This document shows, piece by piece, positions 68 to 14,959 of a DNA stretch of 14,959 nt. The stretch spans positions 1-14,959 of the forward strand of contig RFHX01000193.1 of the NCBI GenBank assembly GCA_003695725.1. The letters are read 5' to 3'. A program made the translations under genes and the position numbers. Under the pieces are notes generated by a model. It did no database searches. It was not told where the DNA came from and saw only the letters and a list, made by a program, of their open reading frames with translations. The stretch's first letter is position 1, and each line of letters opens with the position of its first letter. This stretch comes from J061 sp003695725 [NCBI: Candidatus Schekmanbacteria bacterium]. GTDB taxonomy: Bacteria > Schekmanbacteria > GWA2-38-11.

Positions 68-559
68 ATGGCAAACATTTTATTAAACGGCCTTGCTGAA
101 TCTCTTATAACGGCTTTAGCTAATGAGATAAGGGTAATCGAGTTATATTCGAAGTGTCTGAAGCATGAAATAAGTGATGATATGAAGGATGTGATATCTG
201 CAATAATAAACGCGAAGAAAAGACATATGAAAATGTTGAGCGATTTTTTTGAAAAAAAATTTAATAAAAAACTCGATGATTCAAAGATAAAAGAACTATC
301 CCTTGAAAATATCAAAAGTCTTGCTTTTGAACAATATACGCTCCACCTTCTTGATGTTGCCCTTGGTTATCAGACAAGAGGTAAAGACCATCTTGAAAGG
401 TCGGCACAAAACTTTTCCGACTATAAAGATGTGCAAGCTCTCTTTACTAAACTGATAGAGGAAGAAGAAGAATATATTGCAATGATTGAAAAAGAGATAA
501 AAGCAGAGCAGGGGAAACCTTTCAATGATTTCGAGCTTGATTTGTTCGTGAGAGAATAA
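68..559 (+). CDS. Ferritin-like / rubrerythrin-like four-helix protein
   Basis: This 163-residue, mostly alpha-helical, highly charged protein has no signal peptide, so it is probably cytoplasmic. The helices fall roughly at residues 8-34, 36-63, 78-110 and 118-146, the layout of the ferritin-like superfamily that includes rubrerythrin and related diiron proteins. Helix 1 carries E20 and E25, and helix 2 carries H53. The usual ExxH pairs look altered: the position three before H53 is K50, and the helix-4 position where His is expected is Y136 within an EEEEEY run. A normal diiron site is therefore uncertain, and the protein may bind metal differently or have a structural or stress role. The start is supported by a strong GGAGAGGAGG site. 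It appears monocistronic, since the next gene is 419 nt away. The fold call rests on pattern, not on an alignment. Confidence 0.6.
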   Translation: MANILLNGLAESLITALANEIRVIELYSKCLKHEISDDMKDVISAIINAKKRHMKMLSDFFEKKFNKKLDDSKIKELSLENIKSLAFEQYTLHLLDVALGYQTRGKDHLERSAQNFSDYKDVQALFTKLIEEEEEYIAMIEKEIKAEQGKPFNDFELDLFVRE

Positions 560-978: not shown

Positions 979-3900
979 ATGTGCCGTTTTAGTCACATAT
1001 TTCGGTTTTCTATCTTTTTTATTTCATCTTTATTACTTTTAATGCCTCCTGCCCTATCTCATAGTAAAAAAATCACATATTCACCGAGTCTCACTGATTC
1101 CATTACAAGAATATCAATATCACCTTTTTCCAAATATCTCAAATTGGGGAAAAAGCAAAGATTTAGAATCAAACTAAGGGGCTTGGATAATCTGTCCTCA
1201 GAGAGTAAAGAGAGGATAAAGGATATCAAGAGAAGCTTCAAATGGTCAGTAAATGGGATTGAAGGTGGGAATGGTAAATATGGTAAAATCGACAGAAAAG
1301 GCAAATACCGTGCGCCTAAAAAGATAACCGGTAATAATCGTATTATCGTTGCGGCATACAGCCCTGATTTAGGATTGGAGAGCCCTGATGCAGTTGTAAT
1401 TCTTGTTAAAAAGAAAACAGGTAAAGGACGCCTATATATCAAAGCAAGGTGGATGTCAAAGGGGAACAAACGCGCTCTACAGGGAGAAATCCCTGAAGAG
1501 GTAAAAAAAGTAAAAGGCATATTGAAAGATGGCAAAATAGTGATTGAGGAGAAGTTGGTAGATGTAAATGAAAGAAAGATAGAATTTTCATCTGTCCCTC
1601 TTGGCAGGGTATATACGGTTATCCTTCAAGGTATTGATGAAAACGGTGCTGTAATCTATGAGGGAGTCCATAAGAATGTGAAACCAAGACTCCCTGACAA
1701 AAAGCCAAAACCTATTGTTATTGTCTTGAAGACGAAGGAAGGAGAGATAACGATTTCCAATATAACACCGCAGATTGAGAAGATTACCGCAGGGGGCAAA
1801 CAGAAATTTGAAGCAAAGCTCATAGGTGCATTCGACCCTGAAGGTGATGCAATAAAATGGTCAGTTGTAGGCGGTGCGACCGAAGGTCCCATTGGAAATA
1901 TCACCCAGAAGGGACTTTATACAGCGCCGACAACTACATTATCCCCCATTACTGTAACGATTAGAGCTTCTTGGCGCGAGGATGAGAGGAAATTTTCGGA
2001 ATATAGTTTTCAGGTTGTGCCAAATGTTTCAGTTTCTATTTCTCCTTCTTCCACCAGTGTTGAGTCAGGTGGGAAGGTTCAATTCACTGCTTTGGTTACA
2101 GGTGCGTCAGATACGGGTGTTTCTTGGACAGTGGAAGGAGGCGCAGTTAATGGGGCAATAGATGATACAGGACTTTATACGGCTCCTCAGGTTGAAGTAA
2201 CGAAGACTATCAACGTGCATGCAACAAGTGTTGTTGATACATCCAAATATTCAGAAGCTCAGGTCATAGTAAAGCCATTGCCACCTCAGGTTGTAGCAGT
2301 ATATCCAACTGGAGATGCTATAGGAGTGCCGGTAGATACGGTTATTTCAGCTACATTCAGCAGAAAGATGGATAGTTCAACAATAGATTCTTCATCATTT
2401 ATGATAAATGGAATTACAGGTACTATTTCAACCAAAGGGAATACAGTGCTTTTTTATCCAAACAATGAGCTTGAATATGAAAAAGTTTATACAGTTACAA
2501 TTTTTAGCACTATTAGAGATATAAATGGTATTCCATTGGAGAAAAATTATAAATGGTCCTTTTCAACAACAGGCCAGCTTTTTGTATCAGATGCTAATAC
2601 CTTAAGAATTTGTAGTATAAACAATTTTTCAAAAAACAAAGAGATAAAGATTTCATTATCTACAGAAGGTGGATATGAATATGGATACCATATGACAATG
2701 GATAATATAAATAAACGATTATTTGTTATTAATGGAGGCAACGGCATTGAGATATTTGATTTTGCTTCAGGAGAAATAATAAATTGGTCTGCTACAGGAG
2801 GATCTCCTTTGGGAGTAACAGTGCAGAATGATGGAAAAATCATTGTAGTAGATGAACTAACTGAAGATATGAATCGTTATAACCCAGATCTTAGCTTTCT
2901 TGACGATAATGATTATTATAAATTTGACGATCCTGAAGGTGTTGCTTACGACTCATATCATAACCGTATTTATGTTGCAGAACAAAATGATGACAAGATC
3001 TTTATATTTAATGGAACAACTTTAGCTCATATAAACACTGTAAATGTTGACCCAGATAATGCAGACGCACCTTATTGGTTGGTAGTAGATGGAGCTGTAA
3101 ACCGTCTTTTTGTACTTTCCGATGATTATAGTGGTATTTTTGTGTATGATATTATTTCAAATGGAAACGATCTTAAATTTAATAAAAAAATTCCTTCTTC
3201 AGGTGATTGCTATGGTACATTAGCTTTAAGCAAAACAGACCATAAGCTTTTTGCGGTAAATTACTGTAATGATACAGTTGAAGTCTTCAGTACAGAAAGT
3301 CTCAATTTTCTCGGAACAGTTCCTGTCTCATGTACTGGAACAGATCCTTTGATGATTGCAGCTGGAGGCTCTATTCCTGAACCTCCCCCTCAGACTGTAT
3401 TTACAGGCACGCTTTTTGCTGAATCGTTCAGCGGCTCTACAAGTGACAGCGAGGCAACTGCAGTCCGTCAGACATCAGATGGCGGATATGTTGCAGTTGG
3501 CAGAAGCTATTCACCAGCTACAGCCGGTGATATATTCGTAATGAAACTCGATTCCAATGGTTCGATAAATTGGCAAAAGATATTGGATTCATCTTCATGG
3601 GATTATGCGAACGATGTTATCGAAAGTTCCGATGGCGGTTATGTCGTAGGGGGCTATACTACAGCCGGTCCAGCCAGTCATAATGCATTATTGGCAAAAT
3701 TGGATTCCAATGGAAATGTTCAGTGGTCTAATGTCTATGGAGGAAGCGAACAAACTGAAATAAAAAGCGTCCGTGAAACATCAGATGGCGGCTATATTGC
3801 CGTGGGAAGAGCTAATGACAGCACCTTCTGGTTAGCGTGGGCTTTAAAAGTAGATTCAAATGGGATACCTGAATGGCACACGTATCTATTGTCAACTGCA

Positions 3901-4659
3901 GAGAGCGAACTAAATTCTGTAATTGAAGATTCTGGTGGAAATTATGTTGCTGTGGGAAATGCTATTGAAAATGGAGTGAGAAATGTTTGGATTGTCAAAT
4001 TTGGACCTTTTGGAAGTAGCACTCTAACATCCTATAACATTACAAGCGATGATTGGGGATATTCAATAGACAAGACATTGGATGGCGGCTACATAATTGC
4101 AGGACAAAGCTTTTCCTGGAATGGCTTATTGATGAAAGTAAATCCTGATTTCTCAACAGCTTGGCAGAAGAGTTATGGAGGAAGCGGTTTTGACAGATTT
4201 TATTCTGTGAGACAGACAACTGATGGTGGATATGTAGCCGTTGGGTATTCATCCTCTTTTTCTTCTGCAGGAGATAATTCTGCATGGATGATAAAGGTTG
4301 ATGCATCTGGGAATGTATTATGGCAGAAAGAATATTTCTCTCCATTATCCATTCTGGGTGAGGTCTTTCATTCTGTCGAAATGACCGTAGATGGAGGTTT
4401 TATTGTAGCTGGTGCAGGCGATATAGCAGGTAATGATACACAAGAACCGTGGGTACTTCATCTTGATAATAATGGCAATGCAAAAAATGGTTGCATTTTT
4501 GATGTGTTGACGACGAATCTGAGTGTTTTGGACCATACAGCGTCTATATCTTCTGGTGTCAGTTCTTTAGAAGGGAGTCTTGGTGAAGTAAATAATATTG
4601 TACTTTCAGAAAGCAGCTATTCATTGACTGCCAATGATTCATGTGCGACAACTTATTAA
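979..4659 (+). CDS. Large secreted Ig-like / double beta-propeller protein
   Basis: The product is a 1226-residue exported protein. An N-terminal signal peptide (R3, R9, hydrophobic core about 10-22, likely cleavage after A-L-S27) precedes a Lys-rich stretch. Three Ig-like modules follow, each with a conserved Trp (W89, W294, W383) in a W-S/T-V motif and a later G-x-Y-x-AP strand. Between the first and second is a beta-rich segment, about 150-250, that may be a carboxypeptidase-regulatory-like domain. Residues 435-532 read as an SbsA-type Ig-like (Big_5) domain, with P-T/S-G-A-x-G-V-P-V-D near the start and an F-S-x-K-M-D strand. Residues 533-797 form an NHL/YVTN-like propeller (RLFV, RIYVAE and KLFAVN strands). 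A Pro-rich linker (IPEPPPQT) leads to a seven-bladed propeller at about 806-1168. The Cys-containing tail has no LPXTG motif or transmembrane anchor. The start is fixed by AAAGGAGG six nt upstream. A cell-surface adhesion, binding or extracellular matrix role is likely, but no catalytic motif was seen. Confidence 0.8.
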   Translation: MCRFSHIFRFSIFFISSLLLLMPPALSHSKKITYSPSLTDSITRISISPFSKYLKLGKKQRFRIKLRGLDNLSSESKERIKDIKRSFKWSVNGIEGGNGKYGKIDRKGKYRAPKKITGNNRIIVAAYSPDLGLESPDAVVILVKKKTGKGRLYIKARWMSKGNKRALQGEIPEEVKKVKGILKDGKIVIEEKLVDVNERKIEFSSVPLGRVYTVILQGIDENGAVIYEGVHKNVKPRLPDKKPKPIVIVLKTKEGEITISNITPQIEKITAGGKQKFEAKLIGAFDPEGDAIKWSVVGGATEGPIGNITQKGLYTAPTTTLSPITVTIRASWREDERKFSEYSFQVVPNVSVSISPSSTSVESGGKVQFTALVTGASDTGVSWTVEGGAVNGAIDDTGLYTAPQVEVTKTINVHATSVVDTSKYSEAQVIVKPLPPQVVAVYPTGDAIGVPVDTVISATFSRKMDSSTIDSSSFMINGITGTISTKGNTVLFYPNNELEYEKVYTVTIFSTIRDINGIPLEKNYKWSFSTTGQLFVSDANTLRICSINNFSKNKEIKISLSTEGGYEYGYHMTMDNINKRLFVINGGNGIEIFDFASGEIINWSATGGSPLGVTVQNDGKIIVVDELTEDMNRYNPDLSFLDDNDYYKFDDPEGVAYDSYHNRIYVAEQNDDKIFIFNGTTLAHINTVNVDPDNADAPYWLVVDGAVNRLFVLSDDYSGIFVYDIISNGNDLKFNKKIPSSGDCYGTLALSKTDHKLFAVNYCNDTVEVFSTESLNFLGTVPVSCTGTDPLMIAAGGSIPEPPPQTVFTGTLFAESFSGSTSDSEATAVRQTSDGGYVAVGRSYSPATAGDIFVMKLDSNGSINWQKILDSSSWDYANDVIESSDGGYVVGGYTTAGPASHNALLAKLDSNGNVQWSNVYGGSEQTEIKSVRETSDGGYIAVGRANDSTFWLAWALKVDSNGIPEWHTYLLSTAESELNSVIEDSGGNYVAVGNAIENGVRNVWIVKFGPFGSSTLTSYNITSDDWGYSIDKTLDGGYIIAGQSFSWNGLLMKVNPDFSTAWQKSYGGSGFDRFYSVRQTTDGGYVAVGYSSSFSSAGDNSAWMIKVDASGNVLWQKEYFSPLSILGEVFHSVEMTVDGGFIVAGAGDIAGNDTQEPWVLHLDNNGNAKNGCIFDVLTTNLSVLDHTASISSGVSSLEGSLGEVNNIVLSESSYSLTANDSCATTY
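1099..2274 (+). repeat. Three Ig-like modules in the secreted protein
   Basis: This is a protein-level repeat. Each module starts with an S-I/N-S/T-P-type strand and a glycine turn before a K/Q-F strand. It then has K/S-W-S/T-V around W89, W294 or W383, and a G-x-I-x-x-x-G-x-Y-x-AP segment. Modules 2 and 3 (about residues 258-347 and 349-432) are adjacent and more alike. Module 1 (about 43-144) is separated by another beta domain and is more diverged and Lys-rich. Confidence 0.6.
3412..4488 (+). repeat. Seven tandem propeller blades of about 50 residues
   Basis: A D-G-G-Y-V/I-A-V/A-G strand recurs with its Asp (or Ser in blade 4) at residues 834, 885, 936, 985, 1035, 1082 and 1138, giving spacings of 51, 51, 49, 50, 47 and 56. 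Each is followed by a K-L/V-D-S-N-G-x-x-x-W strand-turn-strand. Blades 4, 5 and 7 are the most diverged. The count of seven matches a closed beta-propeller. DNA-level identity between blades is low apart from short GATGGCGG matches, so the duplications are old. Confidence 0.7.
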
Positions 4660-5001: not shown

Positions 5002-5499
5002 ATGGAAAGCAATTTTCCTGTCAATGCAAGCCAATGGTATCATAGTGTTGTGAATTTCGTTTCGGCAGGAGGAGGTGTGGTAACAGGTGAATGGATTGTA
5101 TGGAGTATAGGAGCAGCAGGCGCACATTCAGGTCTTGAACCGATTATTCCAGTAACTTATGCCGGAAGCTATATCACCAATACTACAACGCCAAATACTC
5201 ATACACAGGCAACAGCTGACTCTGTGCTAAACAATGGTCTTTCCTATTGCTTCAGTTTTTATATGGATAATTTAGGCGGTTCTGAATCCTGTCTTACAAC
5301 AAAGAGCAGTGCTTCTACATTTTATACGAGTGACCATGGGGGCTCATACTGCCCATCGGGAAATACGGGAGCGGCATGCTGGAATTACGCCAGCGGCAGA
5401 GTGATTAGTTTTTCAACATTGATTTCCTCTCTTGAATTATCAGACCCCTATTACACAACGCTCTTTGTCAATTCCGTAGAATGGGCAGGAAAATGGTAA
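5002..5499 (+). CDS. Hypothetical Cys-containing protein, probably a 5'-truncated remnant
   Basis: This 165-residue ORF belongs to no family I can name with confidence. It has four cysteines (C83, C97, C117, C126) and is rich in Ser, Thr, Gly and Tyr, which suits an extracytoplasmic protein with disulfides, yet it has no signal peptide. Residues 23-31 read GGGVVTGEW. This glycine-rich turn after a hydrophobic strand recalls ThuA-like or class I glutamine-amidotransferase-like folds, but the resemblance is weak. No Shine-Dalgarno sequence precedes the ATG. The same frame remains open upstream to a TAG at 4930 with plausible protein sequence. I infer that this is the 3' part of a longer secreted-protein gene broken by a stop, or a sequence error at that point. 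It could instead be a short gene with an unusual start. Confidence 0.45.
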   Translation: MESNFPVNASQWYHSVVNFVSAGGGVVTGEWIVWSIGAAGAHSGLEPIIPVTYAGSYITNTTTPNTHTQATADSVLNNGLSYCFSFYMDNLGGSESCLTTKSSASTFYTSDHGGSYCPSGNTGAACWNYASGRVISFSTLISSLELSDPYYTTLFVNSVEWAGKW

Positions 5500-5860: not shown

Positions 5861-6586
5861 GTGTATAAAGGCAAAACGGTTTCAGTAATTCTTCCTACCT
5901 ATAATGAGAAGGATTCAATAAGGCAGGTTATCAATGATTTTTTTGATACCGGTTATGTTGATGAGGTGGTTGTCGTCAATAATAATGCCGCTGAGGGAAC
6001 AGAAGAAGAAGTAAATAAAACACAAGCCAGACAAATCTTTGAAAAAAAACAGGGCTATGGATATGCTACCCAACGAGGACTTGCCGAAGCCAAAGGAGAC
6101 CTTTTAGTTATTTGCGAACCTGATGGGACATTTATTGCCCATGACATAATCAAACTGCTTGCTTATTCTGAGGATTTTGATGTCGTTTTTGGGACGAGGA
6201 CGACTTCAAAAATGATTCTTGAAGGAGCAAATATGGGATTTTTCCTGAGACTCGGCAATTGGGCTGTGGCGAAAATGATGGAAGTTCTCTTTCTTACAAG
6301 CGCTTTGACAGATGTAGGATGTACGATGCGACTTCTTTCAAGAAATGCTTATGAAAAGATAAAGGACCAATTTACAATAGGAGGCTCGCACTTTGGTCCA
6401 GAATTGATGTGTCTTGTAATAATAAATAAAATAAGTTTTATGGAGATACCTGTAAAATATGCTCCCCGTGTTGGAAAATCGTCAGTAACAGGTGATAAAG
6501 TTGTTGCTTTTTTCTTGGGGCTTAAGATGATTTCACTTATTATAAAGTATAGAATTAAAAGTCTCTTTTCATTAAAGAAGGGTTGA
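5861..6586 (+). CDS. Family 2 glycosyltransferase (polyprenyl-phosphate sugar type)
   Basis: This 241-residue GT-A fold transferase most likely moves a sugar from an NDP-sugar to a lipid-phosphate or glycan acceptor at the inner face of the membrane. The N-terminus has the GT2 strand VSVILPTYNE (residues 7-16), followed by V-V-V-V-N-N-N. The metal/nucleotide motif is E86-P-D88-G, a variant of DxD seen in dolichol-phosphate-mannose-synthase-like GT2 proteins. The later G-C-T-M-R-L-L-S motif also fits that group. There are no full C-terminal transmembrane helices, only a hydrophobic stretch near 217-230, so it is probably peripheral. The start is GTG with GGAG seven nt upstream. It is the first gene of the cluster, 10 nt before the radical SAM gene. 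The donor and acceptor cannot be read from sequence. Confidence 0.8.
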   Translation: MYKGKTVSVILPTYNEKDSIRQVINDFFDTGYVDEVVVVNNNAAEGTEEEVNKTQARQIFEKKQGYGYATQRGLAEAKGDLLVICEPDGTFIAHDIIKLLAYSEDFDVVFGTRTTSKMILEGANMGFFLRLGNWAVAKMMEVLFLTSALTDVGCTMRLLSRNAYEKIKDQFTIGGSHFGPELMCLVIINKISFMEIPVKYAPRVGKSSVTGDKVVAFFLGLKMISLIIKYRIKSLFSLKKG

Positions 6587-6596
6587 CCACCAATTT

Positions 6597-7676
6597 ATGC
6601 CTCTTTTTAATTGGTTTCATATAGGAAGCAATTACCTTTTCAGTAAAAATCCGCTCTACTTGATTTTTCAGATTACATCGAGGTGCAATTCAAGATGTCT
6701 CACCTGTTTCAATTGGAAAATTCTTGATGAAGAGAAAGGAAGAAATGACCTTTCATTAGATGAAATAGAGAAAATTTCTGAAAATTATGGACCACTTTTA
6801 CAATTGACTATTGGCGGCGGAGAGCCTTTTTTGCGTGATGATATCGATGAGATATGCTTTCTTTTCAGTAAAAACAATTCTGTCCAACATATAACAATTC
6901 CTACAAATGCACTGCTACCTGAAAAGGTTGCAGAAAAAATAGAAAGCATTTTGAAAAAGTGTCATTTAAACTATCTTCGTTTAGGCATATCTCTTGATGC
7001 CATAGGTGAAAGACATGACAGGATTAGAGGGGTTGTCGGCAATTATGAAAAAGCAAAGGAGACATACCGACACCTTTTGCCACTGAAGGAGAAATACGAA
7101 AATTTTGGCATAGAAGTAAGCTCAGTCTTTTCAGCTTTGAATAAGGAAATAATGAAGGAAACAATCGATATTGTTAAAGAGGAATTTACTGAAATTGACA
7201 AACATGCAGTTGTAGTAGTGAGGGGCGATGCCAGAAATCCGGAAACAAAGGAAATAACTGCTGATGAATATGCAGATGTCATTGGCTACCTTTACAAGCG
7301 TGAGGAGGCAGAAAAGAGAAAAAGCAGATTTATTCCGGATTTTTTCAAGACTATCTTTAAAATAAATACAGACATTGTCTATAAGAATCTTAAAGGCGAA
7401 AAATGGCCTATTCGATGCCTAGCTGGAAAAAGATTGATTATCATTAAATCAGATGGTGAAGTATTGCCTTGTGAAATTTTGGATGAAGTCTTGGGGAATT
7501 TAAGGGACAATGATTATCAAATGGATAGGATTCTCAATACCGACAAGGCAAAAAGAGTAATAAAGAAGATAAAGGAAACGCAATGCAGCTGCACCTTTGA
7601 GTGTGCTGTCCATGCAAGTTTGATTTTTAATTTTAATAACTATCCTCACATCTTCAAAGAAATGTTGAAACAATAA
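6597..7676 (+). CDS. Radical SAM protein with SPASM/twitch-like C-terminal domain
   Basis: This 359-residue enzyme is predicted to cleave S-adenosylmethionine reductively with a 4Fe-4S cluster held by C30-x3-C34-x2-C37 (S-R-C-N-S-R-C-L-T-C). T-I-G-G-G-E-P supplies the SAM-binding GGE motif. The C-terminus has C274-x17-C292 in the pattern C-x-A-G ... D-G-x-V-x-P-C, then C330-x-C332-x3-C336. This resembles the auxiliary-cluster domain of SPASM/twitch proteins but has fewer and differently spaced cysteines than the classic SPASM motif. Such enzymes modify peptides, sugars or other small molecules. No precursor peptide gene is evident nearby, which argues weakly for a small-molecule or glycan substrate. 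The ATG lies 10 nt after the glycosyltransferase stop, with GAAGGG inside the end of that gene as the probable ribosome site, so the two are probably cotranscribed. Confidence 0.85.
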   Translation: MPLFNWFHIGSNYLFSKNPLYLIFQITSRCNSRCLTCFNWKILDEEKGRNDLSLDEIEKISENYGPLLQLTIGGGEPFLRDDIDEICFLFSKNNSVQHITIPTNALLPEKVAEKIESILKKCHLNYLRLGISLDAIGERHDRIRGVVGNYEKAKETYRHLLPLKEKYENFGIEVSSVFSALNKEIMKETIDIVKEEFTEIDKHAVVVVRGDARNPETKEITADEYADVIGYLYKREEAEKRKSRFIPDFFKTIFKINTDIVYKNLKGEKWPIRCLAGKRLIIIKSDGEVLPCEILDEVLGNLRDNDYQMDRILNTDKAKRVIKKIKETQCSCTFECAVHASLIFNFNNYPHIFKEMLKQ

Positions 7677-7729
7677 TGGTTGGGATATTTACAAAAGATC
7701 CATTTTCGATGGTATATAGCACATTTAAA

Positions 7730-7746
7730 ATCTTCTGAAAGAAGAT
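7730..7746 (+). promoter_or_regulatory. 7-bp perfect hairpin between radical SAM and SDR genes
   Basis: ATCTTCT (7730-7736) and AGAAGAT (7740-7746) are exact complements around a GAA triloop, in the 124-nt gap that is the largest inside the first six genes of the cluster. No T tract follows directly, so termination is doubtful. It could be a processing or mRNA-stability element, or an operator half-site pair. An 11-nt palindrome, TGAAAATTTCA, lies just downstream at 7763-7773. Confidence 0.3.
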
Positions 7747-7800
7747 AGGTTCTTGAAAAATCTGAAAATTTCAAAAAATGAAATGACTTCAAGGTGTTGA

Positions 7801-8784
7801 ATGAAAGTTTTTCTTACAGGTGCGGCAGGATTTATAGGGAATCATTTATTAAATCTGATTATACAAAGAAGTAAATATTCAAATATTGTATGCCCTGTAA
7901 GGGATATGGACAAAATCAAGAGAAAATTTTCAAATGAAAAAGTGTTTTTTTATGAGGGAGATATTTCAGTAAAAGAAGACATAGAAGGTAAAATTAATGG
8001 TTGTGATATTGTTTTTCATCTTGCGGCAAAATCCTTGACAAAGGATAGAAATGAACTTTTGAAAGTCAATGTCGATGGGACTAAAAATATTATCGAGGAA
8101 GCCCTTAAAAGTCAATGTGTAAAGAGAATTATTTATTTAAGCTCCATTTGGGCAGTTGACAGAAGTTTAAAAGATGATTTTTCATTACCTTTATCAAGTA
8201 AATCTGTACCAAATCCAAGGACATTCTATGGAAAAACAAAGCTTGAAGCAGAAAAAATTATTGAAAAAAGCGGCATTCCCTATACCATCCTTCGGCTTCC
8301 GCCAGTTTATGGTCCGGAAAGCAATTTGAATTATTTTTTGTTAAAACTTATAAGAGGTATCGAAAAAGGCAGTAGCATTTATCATTTTCCATTTCCGGGC
8401 AGTGTTAGTTTGGCTTATGTGGAGTCTGTTGCTGATGCCTGTCTTATTGCCGCTGAATCTAAAGAGTTGGAGAATAAAACCATCTTCTTTTGTACTGAAG
8501 AGCGATTGAAAATATTAGATATTTCATCTGAAATTATGCATATAATGGGAAAGAAAAGAAAAAAAGGTGAATTTTTAAAAAAAATAGCTTCTGTCTTTGA
8601 AAAAATTTTTACTTCCTATATAGGCAGGGTTATTATTCCTGTAAAAATTCAAACGCTTTTTTCTGATTATCTTGTCTGTGATTCAGTTGAATTTGAGAAG
8701 ACAACAGGATATAAATCCAAAATATCCTTTAGAGAAGGATTAATTGAAACGATAGATTGGTACAAAAAACAAAAATTCAATTAA
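7801..8784 (+). CDS. Extended SDR: NAD-dependent epimerase/dehydratase/reductase
   Basis: This 327-residue Rossmann-fold protein is of the extended short-chain dehydrogenase type. The cofactor motif is TG7-A-A-G10-F-I-G13 at the N-terminus. D-I-V-F-H-L-A-A-K is the conserved strand-4 motif. S114/S115 (Y-L-S-S) and Y143-x3-K147 (YGKTK) form the catalytic triad. R-L-P-P-V-Y-G-P follows as in sugar epimerases and dihydroflavonol-reductase-like enzymes. It probably oxidises, reduces or epimerises a nucleotide sugar or a related ketone/alcohol; the substrate cannot be told. It is soluble. AAGGTG lies a few nt before the ATG. The methyltransferase follows after 21 nt. The association with a GT2 and radical SAM genes recalls, only loosely, hopanoid-type clusters, but no squalene-hopene cyclase is present here. 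Confidence 0.8.
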   Translation: MKVFLTGAAGFIGNHLLNLIIQRSKYSNIVCPVRDMDKIKRKFSNEKVFFYEGDISVKEDIEGKINGCDIVFHLAAKSLTKDRNELLKVNVDGTKNIIEEALKSQCVKRIIYLSSIWAVDRSLKDDFSLPLSSKSVPNPRTFYGKTKLEAEKIIEKSGIPYTILRLPPVYGPESNLNYFLLKLIRGIEKGSSIYHFPFPGSVSLAYVESVADACLIAAESKELENKTIFFCTEERLKILDISSEIMHIMGKKRKKGEFLKKIASVFEKIFTSYIGRVIIPVKIQTLFSDYLVCDSVEFEKTTGYKSKISFREGLIETIDWYKKQKFN

Positions 8785-8805
8785 AACAATAGGATAAATC
8801 AACCA

Positions 8806-9480
8806 ATGAACCATAAGGAGTTGAATGAGAAAAACAGTATATTCGACTGCCTTTTTACGGCACAGGAGATAGAAAAGAGAAAAGAATTGTGGAAGGTATT
8901 GTGCGATGATTTTTTCAGCAAATTTATAAATAGAGCAGATACTGTTGTTGACCTTGGCGCAGGCTATTGTGAATTTATCAACAACATCAAATGCAGAAAA
9001 AAAATAGCTGTTGACTTGAATCGTCATCCTAAAAAATATGCCAACGACGATGTAGAAGTTATAATTTCGCCGGCAACAACTGTGGCGCAAATAGAAGACA
9101 ATTTTGCCGATGTAGTTTTTACAAGCAATTTTTGGGAGCATATGAGAGACAGAGAAGAGATGAAAAGGACTTTGATTGAGGTTAAGAGAATCCTTAAACC
9201 TTCAGGGAAATTGATAATTCTTCAACCAAATATCCGCTATTCATATAAAGTGTATTGGGATTTCTTTGACCATATAATTCCATTGAGTCACAAAAGTATG
9301 GAGGAGATTTTAAGATTTATGGGATTCAAGATAAAGTATATTCAGCCAAAGTTTTTACCTTACAGCACCAAATCGAAATGGCCTCAAAGCGCTTTTTTGG
9401 TGAAACTTTATTTAAAGATGCCTTTTTTGCATTATATCTTTGGGAAGCAGATGGTAATCGTTGCAGAAAAAGGAGATTAA
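8806..9480 (+). CDS. Class I SAM-dependent methyltransferase
   Basis: This 224-residue protein has the seven-strand class I fold. Motif I is V-V-D49-L-G-A-G53. D70 (A-V-D-L-N) lies at the end of strand 2. A-D-V-V-F-T-S-N-F-W-E111-H112 is the strand-4 acidic region, and I-L-K-P-S-G-K-L follows. The E-H motif and C-terminal F-x-P-x-S-T-K type sequence match methyltransferases common in cell-surface and secondary-metabolite loci. The substrate (O, N or C acceptor) is unknown. The start ATG has AGGAT ten nt upstream, an acceptable but weak site. It sits 21 nt after the SDR gene and 24 nt before the first B12 radical SAM gene, consistent with one operon. Confidence 0.8.
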   Translation: MNHKELNEKNSIFDCLFTAQEIEKRKELWKVLCDDFFSKFINRADTVVDLGAGYCEFINNIKCRKKIAVDLNRHPKKYANDDVEVIISPATTVAQIEDNFADVVFTSNFWEHMRDREEMKRTLIEVKRILKPSGKLIILQPNIRYSYKVYWDFFDHIIPLSHKSMEEILRFMGFKIKYIQPKFLPYSTKSKWPQSAFLVKLYLKMPFLHYIFGKQMVIVAEKGD

Positions 9481-9504
9481 AAAAAATATTTAATTATTTG
9501 AATT

Positions 9505-11007
9505 ATGAAAGTTCTATTTATTTCAAAAGGACAGGAAACACTTGCAATTGAGTATCTTTCATCGGCATTGAAAAAGGAAGGCCATAAGGTTGAGCTTCTT
9601 TTTGACCCCGGTTTGGATGACAATATGGGGTTTTGGGATGTCTCCATTTTAAGAAAGATTAATCCTGATAATGTATTTAAGAAGGAGATTGCACGATTTA
9701 GCCCTGACCTTGTTGCGCTTTCCTGTCCTTTGAATATGTTTCCTTTTGTCAGGAAAGCAGCTGCCCTTGTCAAAAGCGTGGGACAGATTCCTGTAATTGT
9801 AGGAGGCGGCCATCCCACAATTGCTCCTGATTATGTACTTTCCGATAAGAATGTAGATATTGTTTGTCTCGGGGAAGGAGAGGAGCCTCTTGTAGAGCTT
9901 GCAGAAAGGATTGAATCAGGAAAAAGTTATGATGATGTAAAAAATCTTTGGATAAAAAAAGAAAATGGAATAGTAAAAAATCCGATTCGCCCCTTGCTTG
10001 AAGACCTGGATTCCTTGCCTTTTCCTGACAGAGAAATATTCTATAGATACAACTGTTTTTCCGGTAATCTTTACTTTATAGCAGGACGGGGATGTCCCTT
10101 CAACTGCACCTATTGCTGTCAACATTCCTTTCAGAATATATACAGAGGTCTAGGAAAGTATGTACGCCTGAGAAGTGTCGATAATGTGATAGAAGAATTG
10201 ATCGAAGCAGTAAAAAAGTATCCTGCCGAGCATATCCATTCAGAAGATGACACCTTTGCCTTTGACCATAACTGGACAAAGGATTTCTGCAGAGAATATA
10301 AAAAACATATTGGTATCCCCTTTTATTGCCATGTAAGGCCCGGCACATTGACTGAGGAAATCTTGAATGACCTTGCTGATGCGGGATGTGTCGGAGTTTT
10401 TTTTGGTGTTGATTGTGGCAATGAAGAAATGCGGACAACGGTTTTGAAAAGAAAAATTCCAAACGATGTTATTATCGAACAAGCAAAGCTCGTCAAAAAA
10501 TCAGGAATAAAGCTTTCCTGCTCATCGATGTTTTGTTTACCCGGTGAAACGCCTGAGCAGATGTATGAAACATTCAATATGATAAAAGAGATAGACAGCG
10601 ACTATGCTTATGCCACGATTTATTATCCTTTCTATGGGACTGAGCTTTTCGATTATGCTTATGAAAATGGGTATCTTGATGAAGAGACTGTTGCATTAAT
10701 CAAAGATGGCGGTGGCTCTTTATATGGCGAACCTCTTATTAAGAGCAAATACAAGGATACAGCATTGCTATTGAAAAATGTCCTTCCTGCTTATATGAGA
10801 TTTAAAAAATTAAGATCTATTTTTGATTATATTTTAAAGATGAAATCCTGCACCGCTGGAAAAATTGTCAATTTGTTTTTAACTCCCTTTTCCTATGGGA
10901 CTCTTGGCAAACTAAAGCGAAGAGAAATGTTGAGAGTTTTTTTCAGATTTCTATCCTATTGGCTTCGTCTGACGCCTATAAAAAAAATAGCAGGAGGCAA
11001 AGACTGA
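9505..11007 (+). CDS. B12-binding-domain radical SAM protein, first tandem copy
   Basis: This 500-residue enzyme has an N-terminal cobalamin-binding-type Rossmann domain (about 1-140) and a radical SAM core (about 185-400). The B12 domain shows E-Y-L-S-S-A-L-K-K-x-G-H, V-I-V-G-G-G-H103-P-T and a G-E-G-E-E-P segment. No DxHxxG base-off motif is seen, as in many family members. The 4Fe-4S site is C197-x3-C201-x2-C204, with an extra Cys at 205. Class members typically perform C-methylation of sp3 carbons, ring contraction or cyclisation. The C-terminus (about 400-500) is Lys/hydrophobic-rich and may act in substrate or membrane association. No convincing Shine-Dalgarno lies near the ATG (AGGAG is 29 nt upstream), and an in-frame TGA two codons upstream blocks a longer start. 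It is paralogous to the next gene, 3 nt downstream. Confidence 0.85.
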   Translation: MKVLFISKGQETLAIEYLSSALKKEGHKVELLFDPGLDDNMGFWDVSILRKINPDNVFKKEIARFSPDLVALSCPLNMFPFVRKAAALVKSVGQIPVIVGGGHPTIAPDYVLSDKNVDIVCLGEGEEPLVELAERIESGKSYDDVKNLWIKKENGIVKNPIRPLLEDLDSLPFPDREIFYRYNCFSGNLYFIAGRGCPFNCTYCCQHSFQNIYRGLGKYVRLRSVDNVIEELIEAVKKYPAEHIHSEDDTFAFDHNWTKDFCREYKKHIGIPFYCHVRPGTLTEEILNDLADAGCVGVFFGVDCGNEEMRTTVLKRKIPNDVIIEQAKLVKKSGIKLSCSSMFCLPGETPEQMYETFNMIKEIDSDYAYATIYYPFYGTELFDYAYENGYLDEETVALIKDGGGSLYGEPLIKSKYKDTALLLKNVLPAYMRFKKLRSIFDYILKMKSCTAGKIVNLFLTPFSYGTLGKLKRREMLRVFFRFLSYWLRLTPIKKIAGGKD

Positions 11008-11010
11008 TAG

Positions 11011-12489
11011 ATGAGAGTCCTTTTTTTTGCTGTAGGACAGGAGCTTCTTGGCATTGAATATCTTTCATCAGCGCTAAAAAAGGATGGCCATGAAGTTGAG
11101 TTAGCTTTTGACCCGGGCCTCGATAACTTTCTTGGTTTTATCGATGTTGGTGTATTGAAAAAACTCAGCGGTGATAAATGGTATCTTGAGAAGATAAAAT
11201 CTTTCAAACCGGATTTGATAGGTTTTAGCTGCCTTACGAATCTCTATTCCTTTGCCTGCGAGAAAGCGAGGAAAATAAAAGAACATTTCGATATTCCTAT
11301 TGTAATTGGTGGTATTCATCCAACTATCCTACCTGATTATGTAATGGAAAATGGAAATTTTGATATCCTCTGTATCGGTGAAGCAGATGAGGCATTTCCT
11401 GAACTTTTAAGAAAAATGCAAAAAGAAGAAGGTTACTATGATACCAAAAACTTTTGGTTTAGAAAAAATGGGACAATAATTAAAAATGATGTACGTCCCC
11501 TCATACAAGACTTGGATTCACTTCCTTTTGCAGATAGAGAGCTTTTCTACAAGTATGGATGTTTTACGGGCACATTGTACTTTATTTCAGGTAGAGGTTG
11601 TCCTTTTTCCTGCAGCTATTGCTGTCACCACTTTCTGCAGAAAAAATACAAGGGGCTCGGCAAGTATGTGCGAAAAAGAAGTGTAGATAATATTTTGAGT
11701 GAAATAAAACCCTGCCTTGAAAAGTATAAAGTGAAATCACTCTATTCAATGGATGACCTTTTTACGATCAATACCGAATGGATCAAGGAATTTAGTGAAA
11801 AATATCGAAAAATATCGGATTTGCCTATCTATTGCCATGTAAGGCCGGGCACTCTCAATCGGGAGATTGCTAAGGCACTAGCTGATGCAAACTGCACATC
11901 TGTATTTTACGGCATTGATTCAGGAAGCACATACATTCGAAATAATATTATGAACAGAAAAATAAAAGATGAAGACATTATCTCTAATGCCAAGCTTTTG
12001 AAAGAATATGGAATCAAAATTACTACATCTGCAATCTTTTGCCTTCCTGATGAGACAGAAGAGCAGATGTTTGAAACTGTAGAAATAATGAAGAAGATTA
12101 AAGCAGACTACCTTTATACATATATCTATTACCCTTTTCCTAATACAGAATCTTTCAACTATTGTGTAGAAAAGGGACTGCTTGACGAAGAAACTTTGGA
12201 AAAGGTTAAGAATGGAGAAGGTTCTTTTCACAAGAAGCCGCTCATCAAATCAAAGTATGCAGACCTTGCTCAGGTTCTTAAAAGTATAGCACCTCTATAT
12301 GTTAAATTTCCCTTTCTTGCTCCCTTAGTTAAATTTCTAATACGCAAGCGGCTTATTAAATTGAGCGAAATCGTCTTTTTTCTGACAGCGCCTTTTACAT
12401 ATGCGCACTTTGGAAGAGAGAAGATGAAGGAGTTTATTTCTCTTTTCAGAATGGCTCTAATTTCAAAATTTAAAAGAAGAATAGTATAA
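11011..12489 (+). CDS. B12-binding-domain radical SAM protein, second tandem copy
   Basis: This 492-residue protein is colinear with its upstream neighbour. H103 in V-I-G-G-I-H-P-T and the cluster cysteines C197, C201 and C204 fall at identical residue numbers. C205 and the D-L-D-S-L-P-F-x-D-R-E segment before the core are also shared. It is predicted to bind cobalamin and one 4Fe-4S/SAM centre. The C-terminal tail has diverged and is more basic. The ATG lies 3 nt past the previous stop. AGGAGG at 10992-10997, inside the previous gene, is 13 nt upstream, so translational coupling is likely. The pair could act sequentially on one product or as two subunits. A separate substrate for each is equally possible. 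Confidence 0.85.
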   Translation: MRVLFFAVGQELLGIEYLSSALKKDGHEVELAFDPGLDNFLGFIDVGVLKKLSGDKWYLEKIKSFKPDLIGFSCLTNLYSFACEKARKIKEHFDIPIVIGGIHPTILPDYVMENGNFDILCIGEADEAFPELLRKMQKEEGYYDTKNFWFRKNGTIIKNDVRPLIQDLDSLPFADRELFYKYGCFTGTLYFISGRGCPFSCSYCCHHFLQKKYKGLGKYVRKRSVDNILSEIKPCLEKYKVKSLYSMDDLFTINTEWIKEFSEKYRKISDLPIYCHVRPGTLNREIAKALADANCTSVFYGIDSGSTYIRNNIMNRKIKDEDIISNAKLLKEYGIKITTSAIFCLPDETEEQMFETVEIMKKIKADYLYTYIYYPFPNTESFNYCVEKGLLDEETLEKVKNGEGSFHKKPLIKSKYADLAQVLKSIAPLYVKFPFLAPLVKFLIRKRLIKLSEIVFFLTAPFTYAHFGREKMKEFISLFRMALISKFKRRIV

Positions 12490-12490
12490 A

Positions 12491-12985
12491 ATGAAGGAAG
12501 AAGAATTATCCTTTGCCAACAGGTTGAAAGTTAATTTTATCAAACCCTATTTAAGAAAAGAGGACCGCATTATAGATTTGGGGTGCGGTTCAATGTGGCT
12601 TACAAAGTATTTGCGGTCGCAGGGGTTCAACTGTACCGCATTTGACAGCACGCCGCCTGCTGATATAGTGGGCGATATCAAGCATTACCCATTCAAGGAA
12701 TCTTCATATGATACGGCTATTGCCTTTGAGATGATAGAGCATGTTGACTGTATAGACGAAATCAAACATATTCTCAAACCCGGTGGCCTATTATTAGTTA
12801 CAACACCGGTGCCTCATTTTGATTTTGTGTGCAAAATATTGGAATGCCTTTCAATATCGCAGAAAAGGACTTCTCCGCACTCAAACCTGCTTTATCTTGA
12901 AGATATACCAATGAAGCTTGTTGAAAAAAAGGTTTTATTTGGATTGTGCCAATGTGGTGCATTGAGGAATGAAGAGAAGGTCTAA
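12491..12985 (+). CDS. Small class I SAM-dependent methyltransferase
   Basis: This 164-residue protein begins almost directly with the fold. Motif I is I-I-D29-L-G-C-G33-S, D52 (A-F-D-S) follows strand 2, and D-I-x-x-Y-P-F-K-E-S-S-Y-D74 leads to A-F-E-M-I-E83-H84. L-K-P-G-G-L-L-L is also present. It is shorter than most class I enzymes (about 200-250 residues), chiefly in the C-terminal substrate region, so acceptor choice may depend on a partner protein. The ATG starts 1 nt after the upstream stop, with only a weak AAGAAGA purine stretch, so it is probably coupled to the second B12 radical SAM gene. Its substrate is unknown. Confidence 0.8.
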   Translation: MKEEELSFANRLKVNFIKPYLRKEDRIIDLGCGSMWLTKYLRSQGFNCTAFDSTPPADIVGDIKHYPFKESSYDTAIAFEMIEHVDCIDEIKHILKPGGLLLVTTPVPHFDFVCKILECLSISQKRTSPHSNLLYLEDIPMKLVEKKVLFGLCQCGALRNEEKV

Positions 12986-12997
12986 GTAGAAAGTTTT

Positions 12998-13027
12998 TTG
13001 AAATTTCTGTTATTCTCTTTATATAAT
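12998..13027 (+). promoter_or_regulatory. Sigma70-like promoter for the membrane-protein gene
   Basis: TTGAAA at 12998-13003 (five of six -35 bases), an 18-nt spacer, and a perfect TATAAT at 13022-13027 form the best promoter match in the window. It lies in the 106-nt gap before the membrane protein and would give a leader of roughly 55 nt. That gene may be expressed independently or in addition to read-through from the cluster. Confidence 0.5.
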
Positions 13028-13091
13028 CAGTTAAAATTTTAAAAATTCCTTCTGATTGCAGGCAGAATAATTGGAAGAAAGGGTTTTTTTG

Positions 13092-14959
13092 TTGGCTTCT
13101 GAAAGGATAACTATAAAGTCATATCTTCTACTCTTGGCTTTAACAGTAAACTCTCTTTTTTTGAATGGCTATAGATTCGATTACAACATTCTTACCTCAT
13201 GGCTTAGAAAACAGTCAAATCCTGAGCTTTTTAAGAATGATTTTTTTGTCAACACTGTGGACAAGGTGCAGATTAGCTGGTTTTATGAAGTCATAAAAAG
13301 ATTATCGTTTTACATCGACCTTTCAATCCTTTTCTTCTTAGTCCACATTTTTTCGCTTACATTGATGTGTTTTTTCCTTTTCTATCTGGCATATGAATTG
13401 ACAGGGAAAAAAATTATAGGTTATGCATCAGTTTTGATGTTTTCAATGGGAATAAGGCAATGGGTAGCAGGAGCACCGCAGGTTTACTATTTTTTTGTCC
13501 ACCACAGCGCTTTTTCACTTCCCTTTTTTCTTCTCATTCTTACCCTTTTTTTCAAAGGAAAGAGGATTTTGGCGTATTTCCTACTTGGTGTTATGACAAA
13601 TTTTCATCTCTTATTCGATATGTATGTACTTGTTGCCCTATCGATACCATTATTATTGGCAGTATATGAGAAAAGATGCACGATTAAAGAGTTTGTTTAC
13701 TTAATTATTGCTTTTCTGATTCCTGCTATTCCTGCTATAAATCATGCAGTGCAATTTAGTGGAGAGTTTAAAGCAACGCCGGAATGGTTTCGAATTGTTA
13801 GATGGACTATATGGATACATATTCTTCCAAGTAAATGGGGCTTTGAGATAATCAGAAATTTTCTTGTTTATTTCCTCTGCTTTTTTGTGGCTTTTAGAGT
13901 TTATCCCAACAAAGAACATAAAAAAAACGTAGCATCTGTACTTGCGGGGCTTGGCATATTCTGTGCTGTTGGGACATTTTTTGTTGAGGTTGTCCCCACG
14001 CAATTGTTTACTCAGATACAAGTATGGCGAAGCACATGGATTTTCTTTATTTTGAGTATCCCAATTTTTGCAAATTTCATCTATCTTACTTGGAGCGATT
14101 CGCTCATTTCAAAATTTGCCTCTATTTCTACTCTTTTGGTCTTTGGCGGTTATGTAACGACACAATTTAACGACCCTCGTTGTTATTATGAAACACCTTT
14201 TTGGATGCTTCCTTTTTTTATGCTCCTTTCAATAACAGTAGGAGATTTCAATGTCTCTGAAAAATTTAGGAAAGCTTCTTCAATCTTCATCATAATTTTT
14301 TCATTTATAATTTTGGGTGAAACTCTAATTCCTGCCTTCGAAGGAAAATATTTTGATATAGGGGCAAGGAGATTGTTTGTTTTGCTTCTTGCTCTTGGTT
14401 CAGCTCTTTTGTTTTCATGGGATTTTATAAAGAATCTTCCTTCAAATAGGCAGGTGGCAGTTGCTATTTTAAATTTGATAGCTGTTTTTTCAGCGGTAAT
14501 TTTATTGAGAGGTGGAGTTTATTTCCCTTTAAAAGGATATATGGACGGAAGAGAAGGCGATTGGGAAAGAATTCAGTTTTATGTGAGAGACAATACGCCA
14601 ATAGATGCACTTTTTATAGTGCCGCCCTATCTTGCTTATCCTGATTTTAGATTCTATTCAAAGCGTGCAAGCTTTGGAGATTGGGTGGAGGGTGGATTTT
14701 CCGTATATTTGGGTAGTGAATTTGCTGAGGGATGGGCAAGAAGAATGGCAGATATTGGGTTAGATGGAAGAACATTCTTTGATGAAAGTTTTCAGCTCGA
14801 GAGAAAACAATACGCCTCTTTATCGGCGCAGAGAATCATAGAAGCTGGCTATAAATATGGTGCAGACTTTTTTGTGGCTGACAAGAGGAAAGGACAGACA
14901 CTTCCTTTTGAAAAGCTCTATGAAAACAAATCATTTGCATTATACAAGATACCTCTCAC
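13092..14959 (+). CDS. Polytopic membrane protein, GT-C-like (3' end outside window)
   Basis: The frame is open to the window end, giving at least 622 residues. About 13-14 hydrophobic segments fill residues about 10-475, among them ones near 10-25, 72-105, 135-155, 158-191 and 199-216. A soluble C-terminal part begins near 477 (W-E-R-I-Q-F-Y, N-T-P, F-I-V-P-P, F-Y-S-K-R-A-S-F-G-D-W). The first loop has acidic residues (K-N-D-F-F-V-N-T). The layout matches large integral-membrane GT-C-type or DUF6798-like proteins, some of which transfer sugars from polyprenyl-phosphate donors; this is inference by architecture. The TTG at 13092 is preferred, with AAAGGG (13078-13083) at good spacing. TTG at 13089 is possible, and a TAA at 13068 blocks longer forms. 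It is easily missed because it uses TTG and has no stop in the window. Confidence 0.75.
   Translation, partial: MASERITIKSYLLLLALTVNSLFLNGYRFDYNILTSWLRKQSNPELFKNDFFVNTVDKVQISWFYEVIKRLSFYIDLSILFFLVHIFSLTLMCFFLFYLAYELTGKKIIGYASVLMFSMGIRQWVAGAPQVYYFFVHHSAFSLPFFLLILTLFFKGKRILAYFLLGVMTNFHLLFDMYVLVALSIPLLLAVYEKRCTIKEFVYLIIAFLIPAIPAINHAVQFSGEFKATPEWFRIVRWTIWIHILPSKWGFEIIRNFLVYFLCFFVAFRVYPNKEHKKNVASVLAGLGIFCAVGTFFVEVVPTQLFTQIQVWRSTWIFFILSIPIFANFIYLTWSDSLISKFASISTLLVFGGYVTTQFNDPRCYYETPFWMLPFFMLLSITVGDFNVSEKFRKASSIFIIIFSFIILGETLIPAFEGKYFDIGARRLFVLLLALGSALLFSWDFIKNLPSNRQVAVAILNLIAVFSAVILLRGGVYFPLKGYMDGREGDWERIQFYVRDNTPIDALFIVPPYLAYPDFRFYSKRASFGDWVEGGFSVYLGSEFAEGWARRMADIGLDGRTFFDESFQLERKQYASLSAQRIIEAGYKYGADFFVADKRKGQTLPFEKLYENKSFALYKIPL

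What the first reader, a model, noticed from the sequence alone, without database searches (positions are those of the whole stretch)
5861..14959. Unrecognised cluster combining GT2, three radical SAM enzymes, SDR, two methyltransferases and a GT-C-like membrane protein
The genes are co-directional and mostly tightly spaced. Radical SAM/SPASM-like and paired B12 radical SAM enzymes, two SAM methyltransferases, an SDR, a GT2 and a membrane protein resembling a lipid-linked sugar transferase point to synthesis or tailoring of a lipid-linked or surface molecule. I cannot match it to a known pathway; there is no cyclase, PKS/NRPS or precursor peptide in the window.
Basis: partly seen in the sequence, partly recalled or inferred. 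Interest (0 to 1): 0.65.

Follow-up and report, generated by a model that had tools for sequence, protein, structure and literature searches.

The report
Sugar-tailoring radical-enzyme gene cassette
A bacterium from a poorly sampled lineage carries a block of eight co-directional genes that most likely builds a lipid-carried surface sugar and remodels it with three radical enzymes; the set of genes is conserved in a related genus, but what it makes is unknown.

Summary
From 5861 to the contig end lie eight co-directional genes: GT2, radical SAM/SPASM, SDR, methyltransferase, two tandem B12-binding radical SAM enzymes (48% identical to each other), a short methyltransferase, and a DUF6798 protein with 11 hydrophobic segments. 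A second genus of the family has the same eight in the same order (39-86% identity) plus one flavoenzyme gene; there the locus runs on into GT2, GT9, more B12 radical SAM enzymes and YfhO. A third genus of the order keeps GT2, the short methyltransferase, the flavoenzyme and the DUF6798 protein but lacks the middle five genes. So SPASM-SDR-MT1-B12a-B12b behaves as a removable tailoring cassette in a conserved core. GT2 orthologues outside the order sit in glycan-type clusters in 3 of 4 cases. None of four genomes of the order shows a squalene-hopene cyclase, against a hopanoid product. No listed function-specific NCBIfam model reaches its cut-off. Best reading: remodelling of a polyprenyl-phosphate-linked sugar that the membrane protein then transfers; chemistry and product are inferred. 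Adjacent B12 radical SAM genes as such are common, so the pair alone is not a marker.

The parts
5861..6586 (+). GT2 glycosyltransferase, 241 aa, GTG start, polyprenyl-phosphate hexosyltransferase-like; the best-conserved gene of the locus
   Evidence: PF00535; nearest NCBIfam models AglJ and dolichyl-phosphate hexose transferase, both far below cut-off; nearest PDB chain by sequence dolichol monophosphate mannose synthase, E 4e-07; 85% in G001, 72% in G002, 66% in G127, 58% in G096
6597..7676 (+). radical SAM/SPASM enzyme, 359 aa
   Evidence: PF04055 + PF13186; CxxxCxxC at residues 30-37; 60% in G001; the next best of the matches listed for 98 genomes is 43%, on another contig of G000
7801..8784 (+). 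extended SDR (NAD-dependent epimerase/dehydratase/reductase type), 327 aa
   Evidence: PF01370; GxxGxxG and YxxxK kept in G001; 39% in G001, the only match at E<=1e-45 in 59 other genomes
8806..9480 (+). class I SAM methyltransferase MT1, 224 aa
   Evidence: PF08241; DLGAG motif; 70% in G001
9505..11007 (+). B12-binding radical SAM enzyme B12a, 500 aa
   Evidence: PF02310 + PF04055; 74% in G001; model pLDDT 84.4; nearest folds MgmA Z 29.9 and AprD4 Z 29.0
11011..12489 (+). B12-binding radical SAM enzyme B12b, 492 aa, tandem paralogue of B12a
   Evidence: 48% to B12a; sister clade of B12a (99/96); 77% in G001
12491..12985 (+). short class I SAM methyltransferase MT2, 164 aa
   Evidence: PF13489/PF08241; equally short in G001 and G002 (70% and 60% by alignment); matches at E<=1e-25 in 3 of 145 genomes, all of this order
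13071..14957 (+). polytopic membrane protein with C-terminal DUF6798, GT-C-like, cut at the contig end
   Evidence: PF20604; 11 hydrophobic segments; 52% in G001, 37-38% in G002

Best explanation
A lipid-linked glycan locus with a radical tailoring cassette. Proposed working: (1) the GT2 puts a hexose on polyprenyl phosphate at the inner face of the membrane (inferred from family); (2) the SPASM enzyme and the two B12 radical SAM paralogues remodel that sugar, or a short lipid-linked oligosaccharide, at unactivated carbons (C-methylation, dehydration/deoxygenation or ring rearrangement), with the SDR oxidising or reducing a keto intermediate, as the reductase AprD3 partners the radical SAM dehydratase AprD4 (inferred by analogy); (3) MT1 and MT2 cap hydroxyls or amines with methyl groups (inferred from family); (4) after flipping, the DUF6798 membrane protein acts as a GT-C-type transferase that moves the finished sugar to its acceptor, a surface glycan, lipid or protein (inferred). 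Shown: gene content, conserved order, the core-plus-cassette pattern, and the glycan setting in relatives.
For: Same eight genes in the same order in G001, with downstream GT2, GT9, further B12 radical SAM enzymes, methyltransferases and YfhO. G002 keeps GT2, MT2, the flavoenzyme and the membrane protein, then MTc 51%, GT2, B12 radical SAM and GT9 72%, and on the same contig a MurJ-like flippase, DUF2304 and another GT2, but lacks the five cassette genes between GT2 and MT2. GT2 orthologues outside the order: 3 of 4 in glycan-type clusters, one (G096) directly beside a B12 radical SAM gene and one (G074) two genes from one. GT2 is nearest to polyprenyl/dolichyl-phosphate sugar transferases. 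Precedents in print: B12 radical SAM methylases of aminoglycosides (GenD1, GenK) and the AprD4/AprD3 pair (passages of PMC5461906); non-methylating B12 radical SAM enzymes, HpnJ among them (passages of the preprint PMC13142503). B12a's fold matches AprD4, which acts on the pseudodisaccharide paromamine, as well as any other by VIA-align (Z 29.0 against 29.9 for MgmA).
Against: No substrate or reaction is identified. B12a matches MgmA, a methylase of a protein glutamine, as closely as AprD4, and Foldseek's E-values put the tryptophan methylase TsrM first. The GT-C fold could not be modelled. In G000 itself the contig ends after the membrane protein, and the genome shows no close relative of the G001 flavoenzyme (best 36%), MTc, GT9 (best 29%) or GTC3, so the wider glycan setting is seen only in relatives. 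G002, without the cassette, has two SPASM-type radical SAM genes of its own on the other side of its GT2 (25% and 24% to the window's), so SPASM enzymes there need not belong to the cassette. One of four GT2 orthologues outside the order (G088) is not in a glycan cluster. The neighbourhood comparison was not tested statistically and its control is not clean. Upstream of GT2 the window carries an exported-protein gene with no evident link.
Confidence: 0.6

Rival explanations
1. Membrane-lipid tailoring: a hopanoid-, ladderane- or polyprenyl-type lipid is the substrate of the B12 radical SAM pair, and the GT2 adds a sugar head group.
For: B12a's best NCBIfam model is HpnJ (134.9 bits) and it also matches the ladderane model (107.2); the SDR's best is HpnA (82.5 bits).
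Against: All far below cut-off (577.6, 360 and 367.65). No PF13249 (squalene-hopene cyclase N-terminal domain) in 4 of 4 genomes of the order, one of them 70% complete; the control search found it in B. subtilis. Relatives of the locus carry several glycosyltransferases and multi-span membrane proteins.
Confidence: 0.15
2. Protein glycosylation: the lipid-linked modified sugar is transferred by the DUF6798 protein to exported proteins rather than to a polysaccharide or lipid.
For: The GT2 is nearest to dolichyl/polyprenyl-phosphate hexose transferases, AglJ of S-layer N-glycosylation among them; TPR-bearing proteins lie in the same contig of G002; a large exported repeat protein lies upstream in the window.
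Against: No oligosaccharyltransferase family appears for the genes scanned; GT9 and YfhO downstream in G001 fit surface glycan assembly equally well.
Confidence: 0.15
3. Peptide (RiPP) or other small-molecule natural product maturation by SPASM and B12 radical SAM enzymes.
For: SPASM and B12 radical SAM enzymes are common in RiPP pathways (recalled); ApyD is among the best NCBIfam matches of B12a and B12b (121.0 and 141.1 bits, cut-off 750), and RiPP maturases such as WgkB are among the SPASM enzyme's matches.
Against: All of these are far below cut-off; glycosyltransferase and membrane-protein partners are conserved in G001 and partly in G002. Small ORFs under 80 aa were not searched for a precursor.
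Confidence: 0.07

Closest known systems
AprD4/AprD3 (radical SAM diol dehydratase and its reductase partner, apramycin pathway)
   Same: B12a's fold aligns over 401 residues (Z 29.0); an NAD(P)-binding SDR is encoded alongside; AprD4's substrate is a pseudodisaccharide.
   Different: NF033070 scores 90.5 bits against a cut-off of 500; 21% identity; two B12 paralogues plus a SPASM enzyme; no antibiotic genes seen.
HpnJ (B12 radical SAM enzyme of hopanoid biosynthesis)
   Same: Best NCBIfam match of B12a; PMC13142503 lists HpnJ among the non-methylating B12 radical SAM enzymes.
   Different: 134.9 bits against a cut-off of 577.6; no squalene-hopene cyclase domain found in the order.
GenK/GenD1-type B12 radical SAM methyltransferases
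   Same: Domain make-up as described in PMC5461906; class I methyltransferases nearby.
   Different: Not compared by sequence here; gentamicin tailoring acts on a soluble aminoglycoside, whereas here a lipid carrier is inferred.
Bacterial surface-glycan loci with a Wzx/MurJ-type flippase
   Same: G001/G002 versions hold several GTs, methyltransferases, polytopic membrane proteins and, in G002, a MurJ-like flippase.
   Different: The window itself has no flippase, polymerase or priming transferase before the contig ends; a block with three radical SAM enzymes is, to my knowledge, unusual.
AglJ / dolichyl-phosphate hexose transferase (GT2)
   Same: Best NCBIfam matches of the GT2 (78.0 and 66.2 bits).
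   Different: Far below their cut-offs (325 and 375).

Membership tests
B12-binding radical SAM superfamily (B12a, B12b) | PF02310 and PF04055 above cut-off, with CxxxCxxC | tested here: met
B12-binding radical SAM superfamily (B12a, B12b) | binds and uses cobalamin | not testable with these tools
   the closest folds include cobalamin enzymes such as OxsB and TsrM as well as AprD4; needs purified protein
HpnJ (TIGR03471) | score at or above 577.6 bits | tested here: not met
   134.9 (B12a) and 121 (B12b) bits
HpnJ (TIGR03471) | a hopanoid substrate is made by the host (squalene-hopene cyclase present) | tested here: not met
   PF13249 in 0 of 4 genomes of the order
AprD4 diol dehydratase (NF033070) | score at or above 500 bits | tested here: not met
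   90.5 and 58.9 bits
MgmA (TIGR04014) | score at or above 360 bits | tested here: not met
   98.5 and 95.5 bits
Ladderane-type lipid B12 radical SAM (TIGR04072) | score at or above 360 bits | tested here: not met
   107.2 and 90.2 bits
Radical SAM/SPASM | PF04055 and PF13186 above cut-off | tested here: met
   64.9 and 30.4 bits
Polyprenyl/dolichyl-phosphate hexose transferase (TIGR04182, NF041391) | scores at or above 325 and 375 bits | tested here: not met
   78.0 and 66.2 bits
GT2 (PF00535) | score above the gathering cut-off | tested here: met
   66.2 bits
GT-C glycosyltransferase (DUF6798 protein) | GT-C fold | tested here: inconclusive
   model pLDDT 46.6 from three sequences; PF20604 matched; 11 hydrophobic segments
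Extended SDR | PF01370 with GxxGxxG and YxxxK | tested here: met
Flippase-dependent surface glycan locus | flippase and several GTs in the locus | tested here: inconclusive
   met on the G002 contig; the window's contig ends before this can be judged
RiPP cluster | precursor peptide gene | not tested
   ORFs under 80 aa were not listed

The most novel reading that the evidence does not exclude
A dedicated radical-chemistry cassette that rebuilds the carbon skeleton of a sugar while it hangs on a polyprenyl-phosphate carrier: the SPASM enzyme and two duplicated B12 radical SAM enzymes, with an SDR, make a so far undescribed cell-surface sugar (C-branched, deoxygenated or ring-rearranged), which a new DUF6798 branch of GT-C-like transferases then delivers. 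Lineages add or lose the cassette in an otherwise constant core.
Probability: 0.25. Interest if true: 0.75.

Novelty: new variant of a known kind. Interest (0 to 1): 0.42.

Why it matters
Radical SAM enzymes, B12-dependent ones above all, are known mostly from antibiotics, peptides, cofactors and a few lipids (recalled, and in part). A conserved cassette that joins three of them to a polyprenyl-phosphate-type glycosyltransferase and a possible transferase would point to radical editing of lipid-carried glycans as a little-explored source of rare sugars in uncultured bacteria. The core-versus-cassette comparison between genera gives a natural experiment: a similar core with and without the tailoring genes.

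Tried and rejected
Hopanoid product: rejected as the leading idea because no squalene-hopene cyclase domain was found in 4 of 4 genomes. The tandem B12 pair as a unique marker: rejected, since adjacent B12 radical SAM genes are common and the tree shows independent tandem duplicates, e.g. L065 and L088/L095.

GT-C fold by structure prediction: led nowhere (pLDDT 46.6 with three sequences); no fold search was run on that model. Naming the organism: not achieved; the named-genome scan may leave out the window's own genome and near ones.

Neighbourhood tally: near genes (126 scanned, from 72 loci) show Glyco_transf_9 in 10 and Glycos_transf_2 in 8; far genes (96 scanned, from 57 loci, over 6.5 kb away) show Glycos_transf_2 in 3, with Glyco_transf_9 not among the 25 families listed. 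Radical_SAM (14 of 96) and B12-binding (10 of 96) are also frequent in the far set, and Methyltransf_11 is commoner there (9 of 96 against 3 of 126), so the control lies partly inside the same clusters and I draw no statistical conclusion. 'Near' means the closest ORF of 140-900 aa on each side, not always the adjacent gene; two genes are in both sets. Rows dropped: 79 of the 80 loci were considered (L056 left out, identical in sequence to L038 of G089) and 4 of 130 near genes were left out for size. The ORF caller lost the B12 gene to longer overlapping frames in some loci, L053 and L054 among them, so one search's tables undercount.

Literature: seven searches. Among the papers listed (12 of 32, 12 of 58 and 10 of 15; all hits in the others) I saw none on a lipid-linked glycan cluster with B12 radical SAM enzymes; 'DUF6798' is in no paper of that library. 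The library holds open-licence PMC papers only. I saw listings and starts of abstracts, and passages of two papers (PMC13142503, PMC5461906).
Full report
What is there. The window is one contig (G000:C193, 14,959 bases) of a 2.77-Mb genome in 374 contigs, 97.84% complete. From 5861 to the contig end lie eight co-directional genes with gaps of 10, 124, 21, 24, 3, 1 and 85 bases: GT2; radical SAM/SPASM enzyme; extended SDR; methyltransferase MT1; B12-binding radical SAM enzymes B12a and B12b; short methyltransferase MT2; and a polytopic membrane protein with a C-terminal DUF6798. Radical SAM and SDR signature motifs are intact. No NCBIfam model listed for these proteins reaches its cut-off (for the three radical SAM enzymes the best 25 of 42, 27 and 30 matches are listed; the membrane protein matches none).

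Conservation of the block. The one other genome of the family that the search returned (G001) has all eight genes in the same order: GT2 86%, SPASM 60%, SDR 39%, MT1 70%, B12a 73-74%, B12b 77%, MT2 71%, membrane protein 52%. The difference is a 432-aa flavoenzyme (PF01593; NCBIfam PRK07233, 514.2 bits against a cut-off of 252) between MT2 and the membrane protein. The SDR is more diverged than its neighbours, but no other match at E<=1e-45 exists in G001 and its motifs are kept, so it is a fast-changing orthologue or an old replacement.

Core and cassette. In G002 (same order, other family) one contig holds GT2 (72%), and on the opposite strand beginning about 150 bases away MT2 (61%), the flavoenzyme (63%) and the membrane protein (38%), then MTc (51%), a GT2, a B12 radical SAM enzyme, GT9 (72%), another B12 radical SAM enzyme and GTC3 (57%), much as in G001. 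The five genes SPASM, SDR, MT1, B12a and B12b are absent from between GT2 and MT2. Elsewhere G002 has no match closer than 40% to B12a or 33% to the SPASM enzyme at E<=1e-20, and none at E<=1e-45 to the SDR. On the other side of its GT2, however, G002 has two SPASM-type genes of its own, 25% and 24% identical to the window's. The middle five genes thus behave as a unit present in 2 of the 4 genomes of this order returned; whether G002 lost it or the family gained it is open. G003, the fourth genome (70% complete), has no match to GT2, MT2, the membrane protein or the flavoenzyme at the thresholds used. MT2 matches at E<=1e-25 in 3 of 145 genomes, all of this order. The window genome lacks close relatives of the G001 flavoenzyme, MTc, GT9 and GTC3, so GT2 to the membrane protein may be all that this genome has, or the rest fell into an assembly gap.

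Setting in relatives. In G001 the block is followed by a methyltransferase, GT2, B12 radical SAM enzyme, GT9, methyltransferase, another B12 radical SAM enzyme, large membrane proteins and YfhO. The same contig of G002 also holds a MurJ-like flippase, a GT2 with DUF2304, and two TPR-bearing proteins. GT2 matches at E<=1e-35 outside the order occur in 4 of the 145 genomes searched: G127 (66%), G096 (58%), G088 (42%) and G074 (41%). Three of the four lie in glycan-type clusters by blastp, protein starts and a Pfam check of some neighbours: G127 with GDP-mannose dehydratase, GT1/GT4-type transferase, GT2 and polysaccharide deacetylase; G096 with GT1/GT4-type transferase, GT9, a PF00953 transferase and, directly upstream, a B12 radical SAM gene; G074 with GT2, methyltransferase and two B12 radical SAM genes. 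G088's neighbours are a nickel-insertion protein, an AAA protein and another radical SAM protein, not a glycan cluster. This is the main independent support for a glycan.

The B12 pair. B12a and B12b are sister clades (99/96), each pairing with its G001 orthologue (100/100): the duplication is local and older than the split of the two genera (77 rows). B12a's model is good (pLDDT 84.4). By VIA-align its nearest solved structures are MgmA (Z 29.9, 379 residues, rmsd 3.3) and AprD4 (Z 29.0, 401 residues, rmsd 3.3), a tie, then CysS, OxsB and TsrM; Foldseek's E-values put TsrM first. So the fold cannot choose between C-methylation, dehydration and rearrangement. Of 126 near-neighbour genes scanned, 25 are radical SAM and 20 carry a B12-binding domain, so neighbouring B12 radical SAM genes are ordinary.

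How it most likely works. GT2 makes a polyprenyl-phosphate sugar; the cassette remodels it; the DUF6798 protein transfers it. Each chemical step is inferred. Precedents read in passages: GenD1 and GenK methylate aminoglycosides, and AprD4 with its reductase AprD3 deoxygenates paromamine (PMC5461906); HpnJ, OxsB, BchE and PbsB are non-methylating B12 radical SAM enzymes (PMC13142503, a preprint). The SDR beside the radical SAM genes fits the AprD4/AprD3 division of labour, but AprD4 membership fails by score. A hopanoid substrate is unlikely, as no squalene-hopene cyclase domain was found in the order.

Limits. Novelty lies in the combination and in the core/cassette pattern, not in any single enzyme family.

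Noticed in passing
L153, L154, L158, L167 (G000:C282, G000:C318, G001:C7, G002:C18): A flavin amine-oxidase-like gene repeatedly sits next to a B12 radical SAM gene of another subgroup in this order; the copies tested in L153 and L154 are PRK07233 and PRK07208 types above cut-off. A recurring two-gene pair of unknown function.
   Followed up: partly
window 979-4659: A 1226-aa protein with an N-terminal hydrophobic segment, a bacterial Ig-like domain (PF13205), a weak NHL match and sub-threshold delta-60 and beta-propeller matches; probably a surface or exported protein upstream of the cluster.
   Followed up: no
window 5002-5499: A 165-aa ORF without any Pfam or NCBIfam match between the exported-protein gene and the GT2; could be a remnant or a small protein of its own.
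   Followed up: no
window 68-559: A 163-aa ORF that looks ferritin-like by eye; only a weak NCBIfam match to the end of a fused protein with a ferritin domain (18 bits).
   Followed up: no
L065 (genes at 8339 and 9968); L088 (1538, 3069); L095 (10001, 11662): Independent tandem duplications of B12 radical SAM genes in LCP-89 and Omnitrophota: adjacent paralogues arose more than once.
   Followed up: partly
G002:C37:23401-24585 (in L037): The match to the G001 GT9 gene is 72% identical and has one stop codon inside the matched open frame.
   Followed up: no
window 12998-13027: An 11-of-12 sigma-70-like site in the 85-base gap before the membrane-protein gene; overall such sites are at chance level, but it would allow separate transcription.
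   Followed up: no
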